Shown one piece after another: positions 19,961 through 25,357 of a stretch of 38,783 nt of DNA. Position 1 is the first letter of the stretch. Each line of letters opens with the position of its first letter. The notes beneath the pieces are model-generated. The model saw only the letters and a list, made by a program, of their open reading frames with translations, did no database searches and had not been told where the DNA came from. This DNA comes from Blautia sp. (GTDB taxonomy: Bacteria; Bacillota; Clostridia; Lachnospirales; Lachnospiraceae), in assembly GCA_023667395.1 (NCBI GenBank), contig JAMPAC010000001.1, forward strand, positions 769,287-808,069. Direction: 5' to 3'. The translations under genes and the position numbers were made by a program.

Positions 19961-20347
19961 TTAAAGTAAAACAATATTCTTTCCTGTTTCAAATGCTTTT
20001 AAAATTTTTGACACACCATCACATGAAGCAATAAGATTTTTGACCTCGTTCGCCTGTTCCCCACATGTAATGACCCCGGTCCCGAGATTCTTTCCCAGTT
20101 TGGGATTATTGTGAATCAAACTGAATATTTTTTCCTCTTCATCTTCATTCAATTCATCAAAATAATCACACCATTCCTGCGCACGGGATTCCACAAACAA
20201 TTCTATCGTCCCTAATGCCTCCATTACACGATCAGGAATATCAGTTATTGTCCTTGAAAAATGCACCCCTGCGCACTCAGCATTCAATTTGAAAAGCTGC
20301 CTCAGTTGTTCCGCTTCCGATTTGTTTTCCGTTATATAAATCTTCAT
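19961..20347 (-). CDS. 128-residue protein, last gene of the HerA-nuclease operon
   Basis: A soluble, acidic, alpha/beta-looking protein. It opens with MKIYITENKSEAEQLRQLF and ends with a segment LIASCDGVSKILKAFETGKN. I recognise no family. Its ATG overlaps the stop of the nuclease gene (ATGA), and a GAAGGAGG site inside that gene precedes it, so the two are translationally coupled and probably made in similar amounts. Small acidic partners placed directly after a nuclease are often inhibitors (immunity proteins), which is my leading guess, but a structural or regulatory subunit is equally possible. Base composition is AT-richer than the housekeeping genes. Confidence 0.75.
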   Translation of the reverse strand: MKIYITENKSEAEQLRQLFKLNAECAGVHFSRTITDIPDRVMEALGTIELFVESRAQEWCDYFDELNEDEEEKIFSLIHNNPKLGKNLGTGVITCGEQANEVKNLIASCDGVSKILKAFETGKNIVLL

Positions 20348-21312
20348 TTTCCAAAGACCTCCTTCATTGTGCTTTCAACCTGTTTTACACTGACATCGGA
20401 AATGACAAGCTTTGTGTTGTATTTATTGCAAACTCCTTCAGCCAAACCCGGCTGGGTATCTTTCATATCGGAAGTGGTCAATAACACGCTCTTACCTTCA
20501 TGACCCGATAATTGGTTCGGAATATCATTTTGATTTTTAAGTTCACCATTCAAATAATCCTTTATTCCACACTTACATTCAACAAACAGGCTCTCACCCG
20601 GCTGAATTACTGTCCCCAGCACTTCAATTGGCTTGTCCGCGTTATTATGCGCAATAACATCAGGTCTTGTTTTCCCACTTTCGCCATCAATGTTTCTTTG
20701 TGTACTCTCCACGTCAAGGCCAGCGTCAGTCAATGCATCCTTTGTTGCAATTTCCAGAATCTGGCCTTTTGCCGAATCCATCTTTCTCTTTGCGCTATTC
20801 TTTTCAAGTACAGACGCTTCCGGGTTATTCAGTGTATCCATTGCATCACTCACGCGATCCCATAATTCACTTTTTTCAGGATGCTTTTCCTTGAGACCCT
20901 TTAATCCATCTTTAGTACTGATTTCTTTCTCAATCTGTTCAAGAGCCGAATCCGGTTTTTCAATCTTTTCCACATCGACTTCCTGATCAACAGGCAATTC
21001 GACCCTTTTATCAGGATCAAAAACTTTCTCCTGGTCTTGTTCGCGAACCAGTGGATTTTCAGGCACATCCGCCACTTTTGTATTCTCGGGATCATCCTTT
21101 TCCGTTTTTTCTTTTACACGCTCCCCTATCTCTTTAGGCAGCTTTTCAGACTCCAGAGACCCTCCTATCTCTTTCGGAAGCTTCTCCGTTTCTTTTTCCA
21201 GCGACTCTCCTATCTCTTTCGGAAGTTTCTCCGTTTCTTTCCTCATGACTGCGCCAGTTACTTCCACAGACCTGGCGCTCATTTCCCTTTCCATTGCAAA
21301 TGTTTCAATCAA
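20344..21312 (-). CDS. PD-(D/E)XK nuclease-like protein with N-terminal EKLPKEIG repeats
   Basis: A 322-residue protein in two parts. Residues 1-130 are charged and low-complexity, with EKLPKEIG three times (28-35, 43-50, 56-63), probably an extended or coiled linker. Residues 180-310 fit a restriction-endonuclease-like fold: helix Glu E187 in KGQILEIATKDALTDAG, D218 in TRPDVIA, then E245-x-K247 in LFVECKCG, the usual E...PD...ExK order. The best start is a TTG at 21312, overlapping the HerA stop and preceded by an AGGGGG site; an ATG six codons in is possible. It is coupled both to the ATPase upstream and the 128-residue protein downstream. It probably cleaves DNA, powered or fed by the ATPase, but substrate is unknown. 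Confidence 0.75.
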   Translation of the reverse strand: MIETFAMEREMSARSVEVTGAVMRKETEKLPKEIGESLEKETEKLPKEIGGSLESEKLPKEIGERVKEKTEKDDPENTKVADVPENPLVREQDQEKVFDPDKRVELPVDQEVDVEKIEKPDSALEQIEKEISTKDGLKGLKEKHPEKSELWDRVSDAMDTLNNPEASVLEKNSAKRKMDSAKGQILEIATKDALTDAGLDVESTQRNIDGESGKTRPDVIAHNNADKPIEVLGTVIQPGESLFVECKCGIKDYLNGELKNQNDIPNQLSGHEGKSVLLTTSDMKDTQPGLAEGVCNKYNTKLVISDVSVKQVESTMKEVFGK

Positions 21313-24300
21313 TACGTTAACCCCCTTCCCTCCACGCTCCGGTATCGTTGGACAAGTCTGCCCTCACTTTCGGCTTCTTTGAAAATGGCCTGCATGGCAA
21401 ACCTGCGAATGTGGTCGATCAAAATGTCATCGTCAATTTCCAGGTATGTGCATATCCTCTGATTAACCTTCTCTACCCCTTTGTCCGCATCTTCTTCTGA
21501 TTCCAGGACATCTCCCAATTTCTGCCCATCAAAAACATTGTAGGCAACGATCTCCCTTTCTTCATCCGTAATATCCTTCCCCTCCAGAACAGACAATAAA
21601 ATCCTTTTTGTTAATAAGGAATTTCGCAGACTGTTGATCCAGTCCCGCACAATATCCGCATCTTCATCCTTTATTTCATATCCGTCCCTGATCCCGAATA
21701 CTCTGTTCAGGAAATGCTTCAATACCTGGGAATCATCCCTGGGATCATAATGAAAAGGCCTTTCCTTTTCATATTTTTCAAAATGGCACAAAACGGCCTC
21801 AACCCAGTCATTCTGATATACTGCCGCCACACCTTTAGGCAGCTTGGCAAGTTCGACGATCTGATCATCCGATAACGCCATGGAAGAACCAACAGGTTTC
21901 CTGTCCAGATCATCGGGAAGCCGCAATGCAATCTTAGTATTGGTATTACGGATGACGGCTTCGTCCAATAAAGCAGGCGCCTGATCGGCAATAATAAAGC
22001 CTTCTCCATAAGTCCTCATTTCAGCGATGGAATTGGTCAGCATTTCCACTGCTTTCCCCTGTAGATTTGCCCCCTCCTGAGACTGATTTACAGATGTCTT
22101 TCTTAATAGATTGTGGGCTTCTTCCAATACCGTCACATGGCGCAGCGGCACATTCATTTCCGCTGAACATAAGCGATATTCCTGCAGTTTCATGACAAGA
22201 ATGCCCATCAACAATGATTTCGTCTCCGTTGAGCCAACCCGGCTCAGATCGATGATCACATTATTATCAAAAAGTTCTTCATCGGAAAGTTCCCTGCCCG
22301 AGCAGAATATCTGTCCGTTTATCCCGTTTGTCAGTGACAGCACCCTGGTGATCAGCGCTCCGGAATAATCACTCTTTGTATCGGCCGAATATAAGGAAGA
22401 ATCCATTACCTCCGGCAAAGTCTCTATCAGATCCGCAAAAGTCGGGAAAACCAATGGAACGCACCTGGAATGTCCTAAATTCCAGCCGACCTTTTCGTAA
22501 CTCTTCTCAATAGCATCCTTTAATATGGCAGGCATTGCGGCATACATCGGCCAGCAGGCATTAAAGATCTCAACCAGCCTGTCAATGTGTTCCAGGACAT
22601 GAATTTCCTGCGGAAACGAAAACGGATTGATCTTAAGCAGTTCCGCCTTGGCAATGTTTGTGCCGTATACTTTACAGTCGCCTCCAAATATATTTTTATA
22701 TTCACCCTTGGCCGGTTCCACAACCAGATACTTCACCTTATTATCATGCAATCTACTTATCAGCTGATATATCGTATTGGACTTACCCGTTCCCGTTGAG
22801 CCTGTGACAAACACATGTGAAGCCAGACTGTCAACATCCAGTTTCACTTTACTCTCTTCATCCCTCCTCATATGGAATACGTTTCCAATCTCGATCTCTT
22901 TCCCGCTGCTGTCCTCTCCCTCCGTAAATTTATGTACCTCCCTGCCAAAAGACGCGCTTTCCAGTACCGGAAGACCGCTTACTGATCTGCTTGGAAAATT
23001 CAGGGCCTTTGCCAGTTCTTTTCCCGAAAGGGACAACGTCAGGTCCGCCTCGATAGGATAGATCATCTCAACCTTCGGATGTCTCAGGCAAAACCTGGGA
23101 TGCCGTAACTTCCTGATCTCATCCAGTATTACAGCCGTTCCTCTCGCCGTCTCTATATCTCCTCCCGTCCACAGATTAATGGCCTCTTTTGCGGAAAAGG
23201 ATTTGTCCCCCTGGGTCAGCGACAGGTACATATGCGCCACATCCTCCGCAGTATCCGCATCCTCAGAAATCGCGTAGGCAGCAAACTTCCACATCCCCAG
23301 AGCCGTACATTCATCCATCCTTTCGACCTGTTTTTCAATGGTATCCAGCAAATGCTTGACCCCATAATTCATATAAGTTCTGGTCATTCCTTCGCTTTTG
23401 CCGACCTGTTCCATCCGATTAAGCGTTTTGGACATATTTACCCCAGCATTAAAACCAAGGCTGCCAATAAACTGCACTCCCACGCTTGCCCCTGCATTTA
23501 CCCCTACAGCCGCTCCCGCACCCAGCATTTCCGACTCTGTGACAGAAGCGTTGGACTGCCATTGCATGAAGGGAGATAATTGCGAATAGATTTCGGAAAG
23601 ATCCGCCTTGACAGCATCCTGCTTTTGAAACGGCTCCGCAAGCAACACCAGCGTATATTCCTCTTTTTTTTGGGAAGGAACGATCCCATCTAACAGCTTT
23701 TCTATATTTTGACTGACAAAATCCTCTGATTTATCAGATGCAAGATTGGAGACCGCCGCCACACTGTAATAGAATGCATCGCCATCTTTGTCCTCTCCGA
23801 TTTCAACGGGACTTCCCTTTACTGTCTTCATTATTTGTGCGCCTGGAAAATTTCCCATCAGGGATTTTCTCAGTCTTTCGGCATATTTATCCGCCATATC
23901 AGGGGCGTCGCTTTCACCTACATTAGAGATTGCGATCGTAACCTTGCTTCCCATCACTGTTCTTCGGTAGATCAGCGCGATATTACAGTCCTGGTTCGCC
24001 AGTGCCTGATAAACATTGACGAGTTTATCCATATTTTTTTCTTTTGCATCTGTCACCCACTTTGTAATGTCAAAATACCGCACTCGGTTTTCCGTCTTGA
24101 ACTCTCTTTTTTGTTTTATTTCTGCCTTTGGAATCATAGGCGCATATTTCCTGCTGAGTTCGGGCAAATATGCCTGATAAATCTTCATTGCATAAGAGTT
24201 CATGATCGTTTCCGTTCTTCTCTCATCTTCAGTCATATCCTGAAGATACTGCTTTCGAGCCTGCTCTAATTTCTCTGCCTGCTCGTCCGTGATCACTGCG

Positions 24301-24389
24301 TTTTCCACTAATAATTCATCGCCCTTTTGCAAAATCGCGCCCTTAATCCTTTTTGACTGTTGAATGGATTCTTTCTTTTCTCTGCTCAT
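21309..24389 (-). CDS. HerA/FtsK-superfamily (DUF87-type) pumping ATPase, 1026 residues
   Basis: A large ATPase of the HerA/VirB4/FtsK class that normally forms a hexameric ring moving DNA or protein. The C-terminal half carries Walker A GSTGTGKS (530-537), Walker B HVTVLEEAHNLL (751-762, with E756/E757), a QA/DQ sensor-like IIADQAP (about 799-805) and a possible Arg finger around NTNTKIALRL (815-824). The N-terminal 500 residues are family-specific, with a Gly/Ala-rich stretch at about 289-318 and a following NYGVKHLLDTIEKQ helix. An SD lies 10 bases ahead of its ATG, which is 6 bases past the upstream gene. It overlaps the nuclease gene. HerA-nuclease pairs are known in archaeal end resection (HerA-NurA) and in several anti-phage systems. 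Confidence 0.9.
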   Translation of the reverse strand: MSREKKESIQQSKRIKGAILQKGDELLVENAVITDEQAEKLEQARKQYLQDMTEDERRTETIMNSYAMKIYQAYLPELSRKYAPMIPKAEIKQKREFKTENRVRYFDITKWVTDAKEKNMDKLVNVYQALANQDCNIALIYRRTVMGSKVTIAISNVGESDAPDMADKYAERLRKSLMGNFPGAQIMKTVKGSPVEIGEDKDGDAFYYSVAAVSNLASDKSEDFVSQNIEKLLDGIVPSQKKEEYTLVLLAEPFQKQDAVKADLSEIYSQLSPFMQWQSNASVTESEMLGAGAAVGVNAGASVGVQFIGSLGFNAGVNMSKTLNRMEQVGKSEGMTRTYMNYGVKHLLDTIEKQVERMDECTALGMWKFAAYAISEDADTAEDVAHMYLSLTQGDKSFSAKEAINLWTGGDIETARGTAVILDEIRKLRHPRFCLRHPKVEMIYPIEADLTLSLSGKELAKALNFPSRSVSGLPVLESASFGREVHKFTEGEDSSGKEIEIGNVFHMRRDEESKVKLDVDSLASHVFVTGSTGTGKSNTIYQLISRLHDNKVKYLVVEPAKGEYKNIFGGDCKVYGTNIAKAELLKINPFSFPQEIHVLEHIDRLVEIFNACWPMYAAMPAILKDAIEKSYEKVGWNLGHSRCVPLVFPTFADLIETLPEVMDSSLYSADTKSDYSGALITRVLSLTNGINGQIFCSGRELSDEELFDNNVIIDLSRVGSTETKSLLMGILVMKLQEYRLCSAEMNVPLRHVTVLEEAHNLLRKTSVNQSQEGANLQGKAVEMLTNSIAEMRTYGEGFIIADQAPALLDEAVIRNTNTKIALRLPDDLDRKPVGSSMALSDDQIVELAKLPKGVAAVYQNDWVEAVLCHFEKYEKERPFHYDPRDDSQVLKHFLNRVFGIRDGYEIKDEDADIVRDWINSLRNSLLTKRILLSVLEGKDITDEEREIVAYNVFDGQKLGDVLESEEDADKGVEKVNQRICTYLEIDDDILIDHIRRFAMQAIFKEAESEGRLVQRYRSVEGRGLTY

Positions 24390-24395
24390 ATGCTT

Positions 24396-24833
24396 CTATG
24401 CCTCCCTGAATGAAAACATTTTTTCAATTTCTTCCTTGCCTGCCTGCAGTCTTTTTTGCTGTTCGATCAATTTCCCCATGCCCACCTGCACAAGACTGTT
24501 TTTCTCTCCATCATCTCCTACAACTGCACTGACACTATCCGGCTCTTCATACGCTTCTTGTGTTGCCAGTGTGCCCGACGCCACGGGAATATTCCATACT
24601 TCCTCTACCTTTGCTTTTAACGCATTGCGCCAGGCATCAAAGGCTTTTTTCCCCTCTTTTCTGATAATGTCTTTGCCTCTCTTCCAAACCTTTTCTAATT
24701 CTGCTTTATATGTTCGTCTGGCACGTGAAATTGTACTGTAATCACGCTTTTGAGGCTGTTCTCCGGCAACTGGAATCTCAAAATACTTATACTGTTCAAC
24801 CCACAAACATATACTTTCTTTCTGATTCCTCAT
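24396..24833 (-). CDS. 145-residue helical protein of the HerA-nuclease operon
   Basis: A soluble protein with a basic, helical central region (SRARRTYKAELEKVWKRGKD) and a C-terminal helix (MGKLIEQQKRLQAGKEEIEK) that could form a coiled coil. No known domain is recognised. It overlaps the HTH gene by 38 bases and ends 6 bases before the HerA gene, so it is part of the coupled block. It may bridge the ATPase to DNA or to the nuclease; this is inference. Only one start codon (ATG at 24833) is available, with a weak ribosome site, consistent with coupling. Confidence 0.7.
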   Translation of the reverse strand: MRNQKESICLWVEQYKYFEIPVAGEQPQKRDYSTISRARRTYKAELEKVWKRGKDIIRKEGKKAFDAWRNALKAKVEEVWNIPVASGTLATQEAYEEPDSVSAVVGDDGEKNSLVQVGMGKLIEQQKRLQAGKEEIEKMFSFREA

Positions 24834-25245
24834 TCCTGATCAGTTCCCGCACCAGCATCTGATCACTTTGCGGGACACAGCAGGCAATGAGCCGCTCAAG
24901 CATATCCGTCATTTCTTCCTTCGTAAATGCCCTGCTGTCCAGAAGGATCTTGCATAAAGCAAGAATCTCGCTGTCTTTCAGTTTTATTTTGTAAATCTGC
25001 TCCAGCCGATATCCTTTCCGGATCCTGTCATAGACCACAGAATTCAGATATCCCGTATGCTCCGCGTCCGCGTCAAGGAAGTTTCTGATATCGTCTATAT
25101 CCCGCTGGATGCTTCTCTCATTGACGCCGTAGGCGCGGGCTTCCTCTCCTTTTTTCACCACATCCCCATTCAGAAGCTTCGTATAAATGGACAGCACCCT
25201 CCCGATCTTATCCCCTTTTGCCCTATCCATCCCCGTTTCGCTCAT
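24796..25245 (-). CDS. HTH transcriptional regulator of the WYL/YafY type lacking its WYL domain
   Basis: A 149-residue protein with an N-terminal winged helix-turn-helix (GDKIGRVLSIYTKLLNGDVV, then NERSIQRDIDDIRNFL), the usual HTH_11 start of WYL-family regulators, followed by the linker (ILALCKILLDSRAF). It stops where a WYL domain would normally begin, at about half the family's length. An AAAGGAG site precedes the ATG at 25245. The gene overlaps the next gene and opens the HerA operon. WYL proteins (BrxR, CapW) commonly repress phage-defence operons. Either the sensing domain was lost when the operon arrived, or this is a compact repressor. Confidence 0.8.
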   Translation of the reverse strand: MSETGMDRAKGDKIGRVLSIYTKLLNGDVVKKGEEARAYGVNERSIQRDIDDIRNFLDADAEHTGYLNSVVYDRIRKGYRLEQIYKIKLKDSEILALCKILLDSRAFTKEEMTDMLERLIACCVPQSDQMLVRELIRNEESERKYMFVG

Positions 25246-25313
25246 ACTTTTTCTCCTTTGCCCGTTCCGTTTCTGACCGGACTGTTCCTACGGCTCCCTG
25301 CCGCTATAACTCC

Positions 25314-25344
25314 ATTATACACAGCTGCCATGACAGAAAGTGTC
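25314..25344 (-). promoter_or_regulatory. promoter and candidate operator of the HerA-nuclease operon
   Basis: On the minus strand a perfect TATAAT (25319-25314) lies about 70 bases before the regulator ATG. The -35 region (ACTTTC, 25341-25336, spacer 16) is poor and falls inside an inverted repeat GACA-GAAAG-TGTC (25332-25344 on the plus strand). A weak -35 covered by a palindrome suits repression by the HTH protein encoded first in the operon. Confidence 0.55.
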
Positions 25345-25357
25345 CATGTGCATTTTT

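What the first reader, a model, noticed from the sequence alone, without database searches (positions are those of the whole stretch)
19961..25345. Five-gene coupled operon: HTH regulator, 145-aa protein, HerA-like ATPase, PD-(D/E)XK nuclease, 128-aa protein
Seen: all five genes are on one strand, each overlapping or within 6 bases of the next (38-base, 6-base, 4-base and 3-base junctions), behind one TATAAT promoter. The ATPase has intact Walker A (530-537) and B (751-762); the nuclease candidate has E187, D218 and E245-x-K247. Known: HerA-type rings pair with nucleases in archaeal HerA-NurA end resection and in several anti-phage systems, and WYL-type HTH proteins often repress defence operons. 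Inference: this is a defence or DNA-processing system in which the ATPase loads or activates the nuclease, with the 145- and 128-residue proteins as adaptor and inhibitor. I do not recognise this exact gene set as a named system. An alternative is a protein translocase with a nuclease effector and its immunity protein.
Basis: partly seen in the sequence, partly recalled or inferred. Interest (0 to 1): 0.85.

Follow-up and report, generated by a model that had tools for sequence, protein, structure and literature searches.

The report
Truncated bacterial toxin-delivery gene cluster
What looked like a five-gene defence operon is a damaged copy of a widespread, apparently undescribed gene system that pairs a molecular pump, often with membrane-shaping dynamin-like proteins, with interchangeable toxins and their matching antidotes, and so may be a new way in which bacteria poison rivals or themselves.

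Summary
The five ORFs exist, but two are fragments. Gene 1 is a WYL-type regulator cut at residue 140 of about 318. Gene 2 (145 aa) corresponds to the C-terminal end of a 444-aa protein found in a congener. The two homologies meet within about 2 bases (nt 24824-24826), so one deletion probably joined them. The three downstream genes are open and belong to a family that I walked in 101 loci. Its ATPase has a HerA/VirB4-type core and a Ser/Thr/Gly-rich insert. It is followed by a toxin (median 219 aa) with an interchangeable C-terminal domain, then an immunity gene. Immunity clusters map strictly to toxin clusters. Toxins of one locus share N-termini but not C-termini. Upstream there is usually a dynamin-family or related protein (72 of 88 loci), and in 31 of 81 loci a tail-anchored protein. 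HerA-nuclease defence is not supported. Export to other cells is inferred; an intracellular suicide role is not excluded. The nuclease fold rests on motif residues only. Ten searches of an open-access library found no description of this system.

The parts
25314..25319 (-). TATAAT, possible -10 element
   Evidence: not listed as a promoter-like site by the scan
24796..25245 (-). Truncated WYL-type regulator: residues 1-140 (nt 24826-25245) homologous to regulators of about 313-344 aa; the last 9 residues have no counterpart
   Evidence: 67% identity to a 318-aa regulator of L039 up to residue 140; the matches of other regulators end at residue 139 or 140 too; PADLOC WYL model E 1.1e-5
24824..24826 (.). 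Inferred deletion junction: regulator homology ends at 24826, homology to the 444-aa protein begins at 24824
24396..24833 (-). C-terminal fragment (about 141 aa) of a protein like the 444-aa one of G725, which has a dynamin-type N-terminal domain and a helical rest; not an intact adaptor
   Evidence: C-terminal dynamin profile 19.1 bits, first of 544 sequences
21309..24389 (-). ATPase, 1026 aa; DUF87/HerA central domain at residues 499-725
   Evidence: Pfam DUF87 52 bits, NCBIfam CedD 99 bits, below its cut-off of 600; 64-member alignment
23367..23582 (-). Variable insert of the ATPase (residues 270-341), 71 aa here (range 52-263, median 153 in 64 members), rich in S/T/G/A/N in the family
20344..21312 (-). 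Putative toxin: N-terminal linker with LPxxIG repeats, C-terminal candidate PD-(D/E)XK nuclease
21124..21225 (-). Three LPKEIG repeats of the toxin N-terminus (residues 24-57 of 316); similar repeats occur in toxins of other C-terminal families
20995..21021 (-). FDPDKRVEL segment, recurrent in toxin N-termini
20344..20847 (-). C-terminal candidate nuclease region with E181, D212, E239-x-K241 (316-aa numbering)
   Evidence: invariant in window, L059, L117; no family or PDB support
19961..20347 (-). Putative cognate immunity protein, 128 aa
   Evidence: travels with this toxin family in 3 of 3 loci, 38% and 34% identity

Best explanation
The locus is a deletion derivative of a polymorphic-toxin system. 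In the complete form a WYL-type regulator precedes an operon of (i) a dynamin-family or dynamin-derived protein with a shared N-terminal domain, (ii) often a small tail-anchored protein, (iii) a VirB4/HerA-like ATPase, by its family probably a hexamer, with a variable insert, and (iv) one to several toxin-immunity pairs. Proposed mechanism: the ATPase recognises the locus-specific N-terminus of the toxin and threads it through or to the membrane, aided by the dynamin-type and the tail-anchored protein; the toxin's C-terminal enzyme damages nucleic acids or proteins in a target cell; the immunity protein protects the producer and its kin. In this genome one deletion of roughly 1.5 kb (estimated from the lengths of relatives) fused the front half of the regulator to the last third of the dynamin-derived protein; ATPase, toxin and immunity genes stay open. 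Shown: truncation and junction, toxin modularity, cognate pairing, matching of toxin N-terminus to locus. Inferred: that the ATPase moves the toxin, that the target is another cell, that the PD-(D/E)XK assignment is right.
For: Pfam on the first gene behind the ATPase, 94 scanned: Colicin-DNase 35, WHH 35 (the two sets may overlap), Endonuclea_NS_2 12, LHH 12, Gln_amidase 2; second gene, 93 scanned: SMI1_KNR4 29, DUF6985 19, YezG-like 8, PoNi_C 2. At E 1e-5, 84 loci: 14 toxin and 15 immunity clusters; 0 of 2733 pairs of loci with different toxin clusters share an immunity cluster (at E 1e-3 the share is 0.067); 49 of 77 pairs of loci with close ATPases carry different toxin clusters (clusters at E 1e-3). 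Ten loci with two effectors: N-terminal z mean 12 within a locus versus 2.4 between loci, C-terminal z between -0.9 and 1.8. N-terminal similarity follows ATPase relatedness among toxins with different C-termini, 0 of 500 permutations reach it. Deletion. Tail-anchored small protein near the ATPase in 31 of 81 loci versus 1 of 80 and 0 of 168 in controls.
Against: No secretion was tested. Toxins carry no known export domain (no WXG100 or LXG among the 17 families). WYL regulators, HerA-type ATPases and dynamin-like GTPases are also known from anti-phage systems. The correlation is weak (Spearman 0.11). The N-terminal motifs were picked by eye before they were counted. The nearest ATPase in the tree of 64 (L059; G725 was not in that tree) has a dynamin tail not similar to the window's fragment; the only strong match of the fragment is the G725 protein, which has no P-loop motif. 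The window's toxin fold has no database support.
Confidence: 0.6

Rival explanations
1. Intracellular suicide or anti-phage system: the ATPase and the dynamin-type protein sense infection or membrane damage and release the toxin from its immunity protein inside the same cell.
For: WYL, HerA and LeoA/LeoBC models of a defence collection match the regulator, ATPase and some GTPases; toxins lack known export domains; several loci are on plasmids.
Against: Strictly paired, exchangeable toxins and immunity proteins of families known from polymorphic toxins; several effectors per locus with one shared N-terminus. PADLOC hits to the GTPases are weak.
Confidence: 0.28
2. HerA-nuclease defence or DNA-processing complex: the ATPase loads or activates the neighbouring nuclease.
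For: HerA models of PADLOC match the ATPase, best E 2.4e-20; the PDB sequences matched are HerA-type helicases or generically named ATPases. PMC9503650 (passages) mentions HerA-like ATPases coupled with a sirtuin or, in variants, with a KTSC-domain protein and an endoDNase.
Against: The neighbour changes from locus to locus and includes putative metallopeptidases and papain-fold enzymes; the second gene changes with it; the 145-aa 'adaptor' is a fragment.
Confidence: 0.06
3. Accessory of a conjugation or type VII apparatus: the ATPase is a spare VirB4/EccE-like part that works with a machine encoded elsewhere.
For: CoCoNuT authors describe an EccE3-like plus VirB4-like ATPase with a variable beta-strand insertion and consider conjugation or secretion (passages of PMC11090510); Pfam TrwB_AAD_bind matches over 55 residues with 24.1 bits, above its cut-off of 20.5; VirB4 models match far below cut-off.
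Against: In the annotated toxin-type plasmid loci the neighbours are regulator, dynamins, small protein, ATPase, nuclease and SMI1-like or hypothetical protein, not transfer genes (the Exiguobacterium locus has no annotated dynamin or regulator); no WXG or LXG family in 94 first downstream genes.
Confidence: 0.06

Closest known systems
EccE3-HerA/VirB4-like ATPase of extended Type III-A CoCoNuT systems (PMC11090510; passages read)
   Same: Similar plan: N-terminal region, insertion of variable length, HerA/VirB4-type ATPase, a small protein in the operon, no WXG100. The authors report an EccE3-like fold and a beta-strand insertion for theirs.
   Different: There it is an add-on to an McrBC-type system; here it stands with dynamin-type proteins and toxin-immunity pairs. 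I could not test the EccE3-like fold or the strands, and made no sequence comparison with CoCoNuT ATPases.
Polymorphic toxin systems (PMC3482391; passages read)
   Same: Shared N-terminus, exchangeable C-terminal enzyme, adjacent cognate immunity; nuclease and immunity families of the kinds treated there (family names recalled, matches).
   Different: The passages that I read name FtsK/HerA-type ATPases for type VII, its relatives and type IV; 'dynamin' does not occur in the held main text (first 300,000 of 357,715 characters).
HerA-nuclease or HerA-Sir2 anti-phage systems
   Same: DUF87/HerA ATPase core.
   Different: Partner not conserved; long N-terminal region and insert; toxin-immunity pairs.
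LeoABC-type bacterial dynamin systems (PADLOC LeoA, LeoBC)
   Same: Weak similarity of three of the GTPases tested.
   Different: The large dynamins of L034 (752 aa) and L068 (853 aa) match no PADLOC model at E 1e-3; ATPase and toxin cassette are additional.
NCBIfam NF033849 serine-rich protein and NF053655 CedD
   Same: ATPase region aligns (44 and 99 bits).
   Different: Both far below the curated cut-offs (650 and 600 bits).

Membership tests
Polymorphic toxin system | Toxins share an N-terminal part while C-terminal enzymes differ | tested here: met
   window toxin versus L039 toxin: only N-terminal residues 9-66 of the 322-aa form align, 40%, E 3.5e-7
Polymorphic toxin system | Adjacent immunity gene that travels with its toxin family | tested here: met
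   0 of 2733 pairs of different toxin clusters share an immunity cluster at E 1e-5
Polymorphic toxin system | Delivery by a known trafficking route marked by an N-terminal domain | tested here: not met
   no WXG, LXG, PAAR or RHS family among the 17 families found for 94 first downstream genes at E 1e-3
Polymorphic toxin system | Toxicity and protection by the partner | not testable with these tools
   needs expression
HerA-nuclease defence/resection | HerA ATPase core | tested here: met
HerA-nuclease defence/resection | Conserved partner nuclease | tested here: not met
   this nuclease in 3 of 84 loci; other enzymes elsewhere
HerA-nuclease defence/resection | N-terminal HAS barrel | tested here: inconclusive
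   the best stretches of the HerA models lie within residues 468-878; no structure prediction was available
Type VII (ESX) secretion | WXG100/LXG substrates and EssC-type ATPase | tested here: not met
   no such family among 94 first downstream genes; one DUF87 domain in the window ATPase
Type IV secretion/conjugation | VirB4/VirD4 plus channel genes | tested here: inconclusive
   TrwB_AAD_bind 24.1 bits over its cut-off of 20.5, VirB4 models below cut-off; no transfer genes directly beside the loci; not searched elsewhere in those genomes
CoCoNuT (EccE3-HerA variant) | McrBC-type core genes in the operon | tested here: inconclusive
   none annotated in five plasmid loci; not searched with models in the others
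LeoABC dynamin system | LeoA/LeoBC proteins | tested here: not met
   only weak partial matches
PD-(D/E)XK nuclease (window toxin) | Restriction-endonuclease fold with E, D, E-x-K residues | tested here: inconclusive
   residues invariant in 3 of 3 members; PADLOC Can1 E 0.006 over residues 176-281; no Pfam, PDB or profile support
WYL-domain regulator (window gene 1) | HTH plus WYL domain | tested here: not met
   front part present, rest missing after residue 140

The most novel reading that the evidence does not exclude
A new toxin-delivery machine that spans several phyla: a dynamin-type protein with a shared N-terminal domain (GTPase domain optional), a tail-anchored adaptor and a VirB4/HerA-like ATPase whose S/T/G-rich insert may form part of the conduit, dedicated to toxins that carry only a short locus-specific N-terminal address. 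It would be a secretion system type of its own, used in monoderm and diderm bacteria alike.
Probability: 0.45. Interest if true: 0.92.

Novelty: new variant of a known kind. Interest (0 to 1): 0.72.

Why it matters
If the ATPase delivers these toxins, it adds a compact route to the known ways in which bacteria exchange toxins, and gives uncharacterised gene runs annotated 'dynamin - hypothetical - ATP-binding - HNH - SMI1/KNR4' a testable role. [quoted passage not shown] I did not check that it is this system. It would also make an open question testable, namely what many bacterial dynamin-like proteins are for.

Tried and rejected
HerA-nuclease defence: rejected because the partner changes. 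Fragment as C-terminus of a true dynamin: first supported by a tail profile, then refined, because the nearest intact relative is a 444-aa protein without P-loop motif, and the dynamin tails of the nearest ATPase relatives tested do not match. The missing parts elsewhere in this genome: only weak matches (E 0.005 for a dynamin of the family; E 0.003 for the regulator's C-terminal half; the 444-aa protein finds only the fragment). Pfam Dynamin_N finds three other dynamin-family genes on contig C179 that lie in a different gene setting. More relatives of the window toxin: none in viral contigs or plasmids, and in 392 genomes of the order only the window's own. Toxin fold through another candidate nuclease family: no match. 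Immunity-type genes further downstream: few in 94 genes scanned, not pursued. Literature: ten searches listed no paper that I recognised as describing this system in the open-access library; subscription papers and preprints were not searchable. Passages were read in PMC3482391, PMC7159879, PMC11090510, PMC13262394 and PMC9503650; no paper was read whole.

Rows dropped: the walk covered 101 loci. L092 (same contig as L042) and the distant L036, L037 and L038 were left out of the Pfam tallies; L076, L094 and L100 have no downstream gene in the walk (101 to 94). For the toxin tests L032, L046, L048, L049, L050, L096, L108, L110, L111 and L116 were left out by eye because the first downstream gene did not look like a compact nuclease-type toxin, although L048 and L050 do carry effector-like genes (94 to 84). 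Two more were too short for (84 to 82). For one search, 10 of the 11 loci printed were used; L109 was dropped because its third gene did not look like an effector.
Full report
What is there. The window lies in contig C111 of an unnamed 4.4-Mb, 206-contig assembly. Five minus-strand ORFs run from 25245 to 19961. By eye, the flanking genes look like branched-chain amino-acid genes on one side and yajC and a tRNA-ribosyltransferase gene on the other (recalled, no search). GC is 0.41-0.48 in the 1-kb windows from 19 to 25 kb against 0.48-0.59 in those from 13 to 19 kb and from 25 to 30 kb.

Genes 1 and 2 are fragments. Gene 1 matches regulators of 313-344 aa beside related ATPases; the best match is 67% over residues 1-140 with a 318-aa protein, and there the similarity ends. 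PADLOC's WYL model gives E 1.1e-5. Gene 2 has no convincing family match. A profile of the last 190 residues of 35 upstream dynamin-family proteins ranked it first among 544 sequences (19.1 bits; next non-self 11.2; best of 200 shuffles 5.0). A search of 138 genomes of the genus with gene 2 found one other genome, G725. There a 444-aa protein without P-loop motif lies in front of an ATPase 57% identical to the window's. Gene 2 aligns to residues 324-442 of it (score 165.5, z 14.3, best of 300 shuffles 77), and the reverse search at E 1e-5 finds only this fragment in the window's genome. The regulator homology ends at nt 24826 and the homology to the 444-aa protein begins at nt 24824; the reading frame of gene 2 is open from a stop codon at 24842. 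In G725 a C-terminal remnant of the regulator (profile positions 257-313) lies at L153 12234-12404, just in front of the 444-aa gene, which fits the ancestral order regulator - dynamin-derived protein - ATPase - toxin - immunity. One deletion of about 1.5 kb (estimated from the lengths of the relatives) explains the window. An assembly error is not excluded.

The ATPase family. Pfam sees DUF87 at residues 499-725 (52 bits) and a short TrwB match just over its cut-off. The eight PDB sequences found by profile are HerA-type helicases or generically named ATPases. In the window's family 46 of 397 genomes have a match at E 1e-40. A DNA search with the ATPase gene of an E. coli plasmid found only that same record among 5426 complete E. 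coli genomes. Between the N-terminal part and the ATPase core sits an insert of 52-263 residues (median 153; 64 members), 71 in the window, on average 59% S, T, G, A and N.

What follows the ATPase. I walked the operon in 101 loci: window, 20 fetched from plasmids and relatives, 80 from the scan. In 80 of 84 toxin-type loci the first downstream gene starts within 30 bases of the ATPase's end; its median length is 219 aa, that of the next gene 127.5 aa. Pfam finds nuclease toxin families in many of the first genes and known immunity families in many of the second. Clustering at E 1e-5 gives 14 toxin and 15 immunity clusters, with no immunity cluster shared by different toxin clusters (0 of 2733 pairs); at E 1e-3 the share rises to 0.067, because two large immunity clusters merge. 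Of 77 pairs of loci with close ATPases, 49 carry different toxin clusters (clusters at E 1e-3). The window's toxin and immunity form one cluster each with those of L059 and L117.

A shared address. Toxins begin with a short variable segment, often followed by an acidic linker (read). LPxxIGE-type repeats occur in 10 of 84, FDPDKR-type in 7 of 84, IKPE-type in 10 of 84. Controls: 0, 0, 0 of 84 immunity proteins; 0, 0, 2 of 929 upstream chunks; 6, 0, 10 of 1680 shuffles; 0, 0, 0 of 39 toxin C-termini. These patterns were chosen by eye from the same sequences. A test without chosen patterns: among 1758 pairs of toxins from different C-terminal families, N-terminal similarity rises with ATPase relatedness (Spearman 0.11; 0 of 500 permutations reach it; mean z 0.55 at the lowest and 15.5, n = 6, at the highest relatedness). 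In ten loci with two effectors the N-termini match each other (mean z 12 versus 2.4 between loci, Mann-Whitney p 1.6e-5) while the C-termini do not. In L114 a putative metallopeptidase and an HNH-type toxin share 33 of the first 52 aligned positions.

What precedes the ATPase. Of 88 loci with at least 3 kb upstream (window and the distant loci L036-L038 and L048-L050 included), 72 have an upstream match to the dynamin profile, which contains the N-terminal domain; 76 carry the N-terminal domain, 73 upstream and 3 (L046, L108, L111) only downstream. A strict P-loop motif was seen in an upstream protein of the operon walk in 46 of 96 loci. Pfam Dynamin_N passes its cut-off in five of ten proteins tested, and Septin in one GTPase of L039. 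The G725 protein and the corresponding proteins of L032 and L035 show no P-loop motif, so the GTPase part seems optional. A small protein with a C-terminal hydrophobic segment lies within two genes of the ATPase in 31 of 81 loci, against 1 of 80 and 0 of 168 in controls.

Mechanism. The pattern is that of a polymorphic toxin system with its own constant module. I infer that the ATPase handles the toxin through its N-terminus, because that is the part matched to the locus, and that the dynamin-type and tail-anchored proteins place this at the membrane. Export to another cell is the likeliest use (about 0.6), release inside the same cell on infection the main rival (about 0.28). Whether the window copy still works without regulator and dynamin-derived protein is unknown.

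Known or new. The closest description that I found is a variant of CoCoNuT operons with an EccE3-like domain, a variable beta-strand insertion and a VirB4-like ATPase, for which the authors considered conjugation or secretion (PMC11090510, passages). The polymorphic-toxin survey PMC3482391 (passages) names FtsK/HerA-type ATPases for types VII and IV and has no 'dynamin' in its held text; PMC7159879 (passages) has none either. PMC9503650 (passages) mentions HerA-like ATPases coupled with sirtuins or endoDNases in conflict systems. 'Dynamin' together with 'polymorphic toxin' occurs in two papers of the library, which by title and abstract concern Neisseria meningitidis and its human host. In this library of open papers I did not find the toxin system; it may be described elsewhere.

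Limits. No structure prediction was possible, so the nuclease fold is motif-level only and the HAS-barrel test is open. ORF starts in the 101 loci are computed, not curated. Locus counts are not corrected for relatedness.

Noticed in passing
L139 (G000 contig C179), 2591-9854: Three dynamin-family genes close together (587, 690, 582 aa) with, by eye, zinc-ribbon and M48-type peptidase genes between them, in the window's own genome; a different dynamin cluster.
   Followed up: partly
L046, L096, L108, L110, L111: A branch of the ATPase followed, instead of a compact toxin, by a protein with the dynamin N-terminal domain (521-526 aa; in L111 about 2.3 kb downstream); Big_2 and transglutaminase-like families appear in the tallies that include these genes.
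   Followed up: no
L044, L063, L064, L067, L068, L072 (third gene behind the ATPase): A second cassette: putative metallopeptidase with HELRHAYQ-type motif plus a 96-98-aa partner, its N-terminus resembling that of the nuclease toxin beside it (z 4.0 to 15.9).
   Followed up: partly
L153, 12234-12404: The congener's locus shows only a C-terminal remnant of the regulator, so regulator loss may be recurrent in this genus.
   Followed up: no
L129, 8946-9902: A locus without a dynamin match: the ATPase is preceded by a full-length regulator and a 318-aa protein with an N-terminal hydrophobic Gly/Ala-rich region.
   Followed up: no
MT837341.1 (hit H21): A 7-kb record labelled 'Bacteriophage sp.' encodes an ATPase 41% identical over 76% of the query; it may be a mislabelled contig or a carried locus.
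   Followed up: no
[quoted passage not shown] it could be this system.
   Followed up: no
L040, 1660-2306 (minus strand): The toxin gene appears split into two short frames (131 and 65 aa) in front of an immunity-like gene; described only.
   Followed up: no
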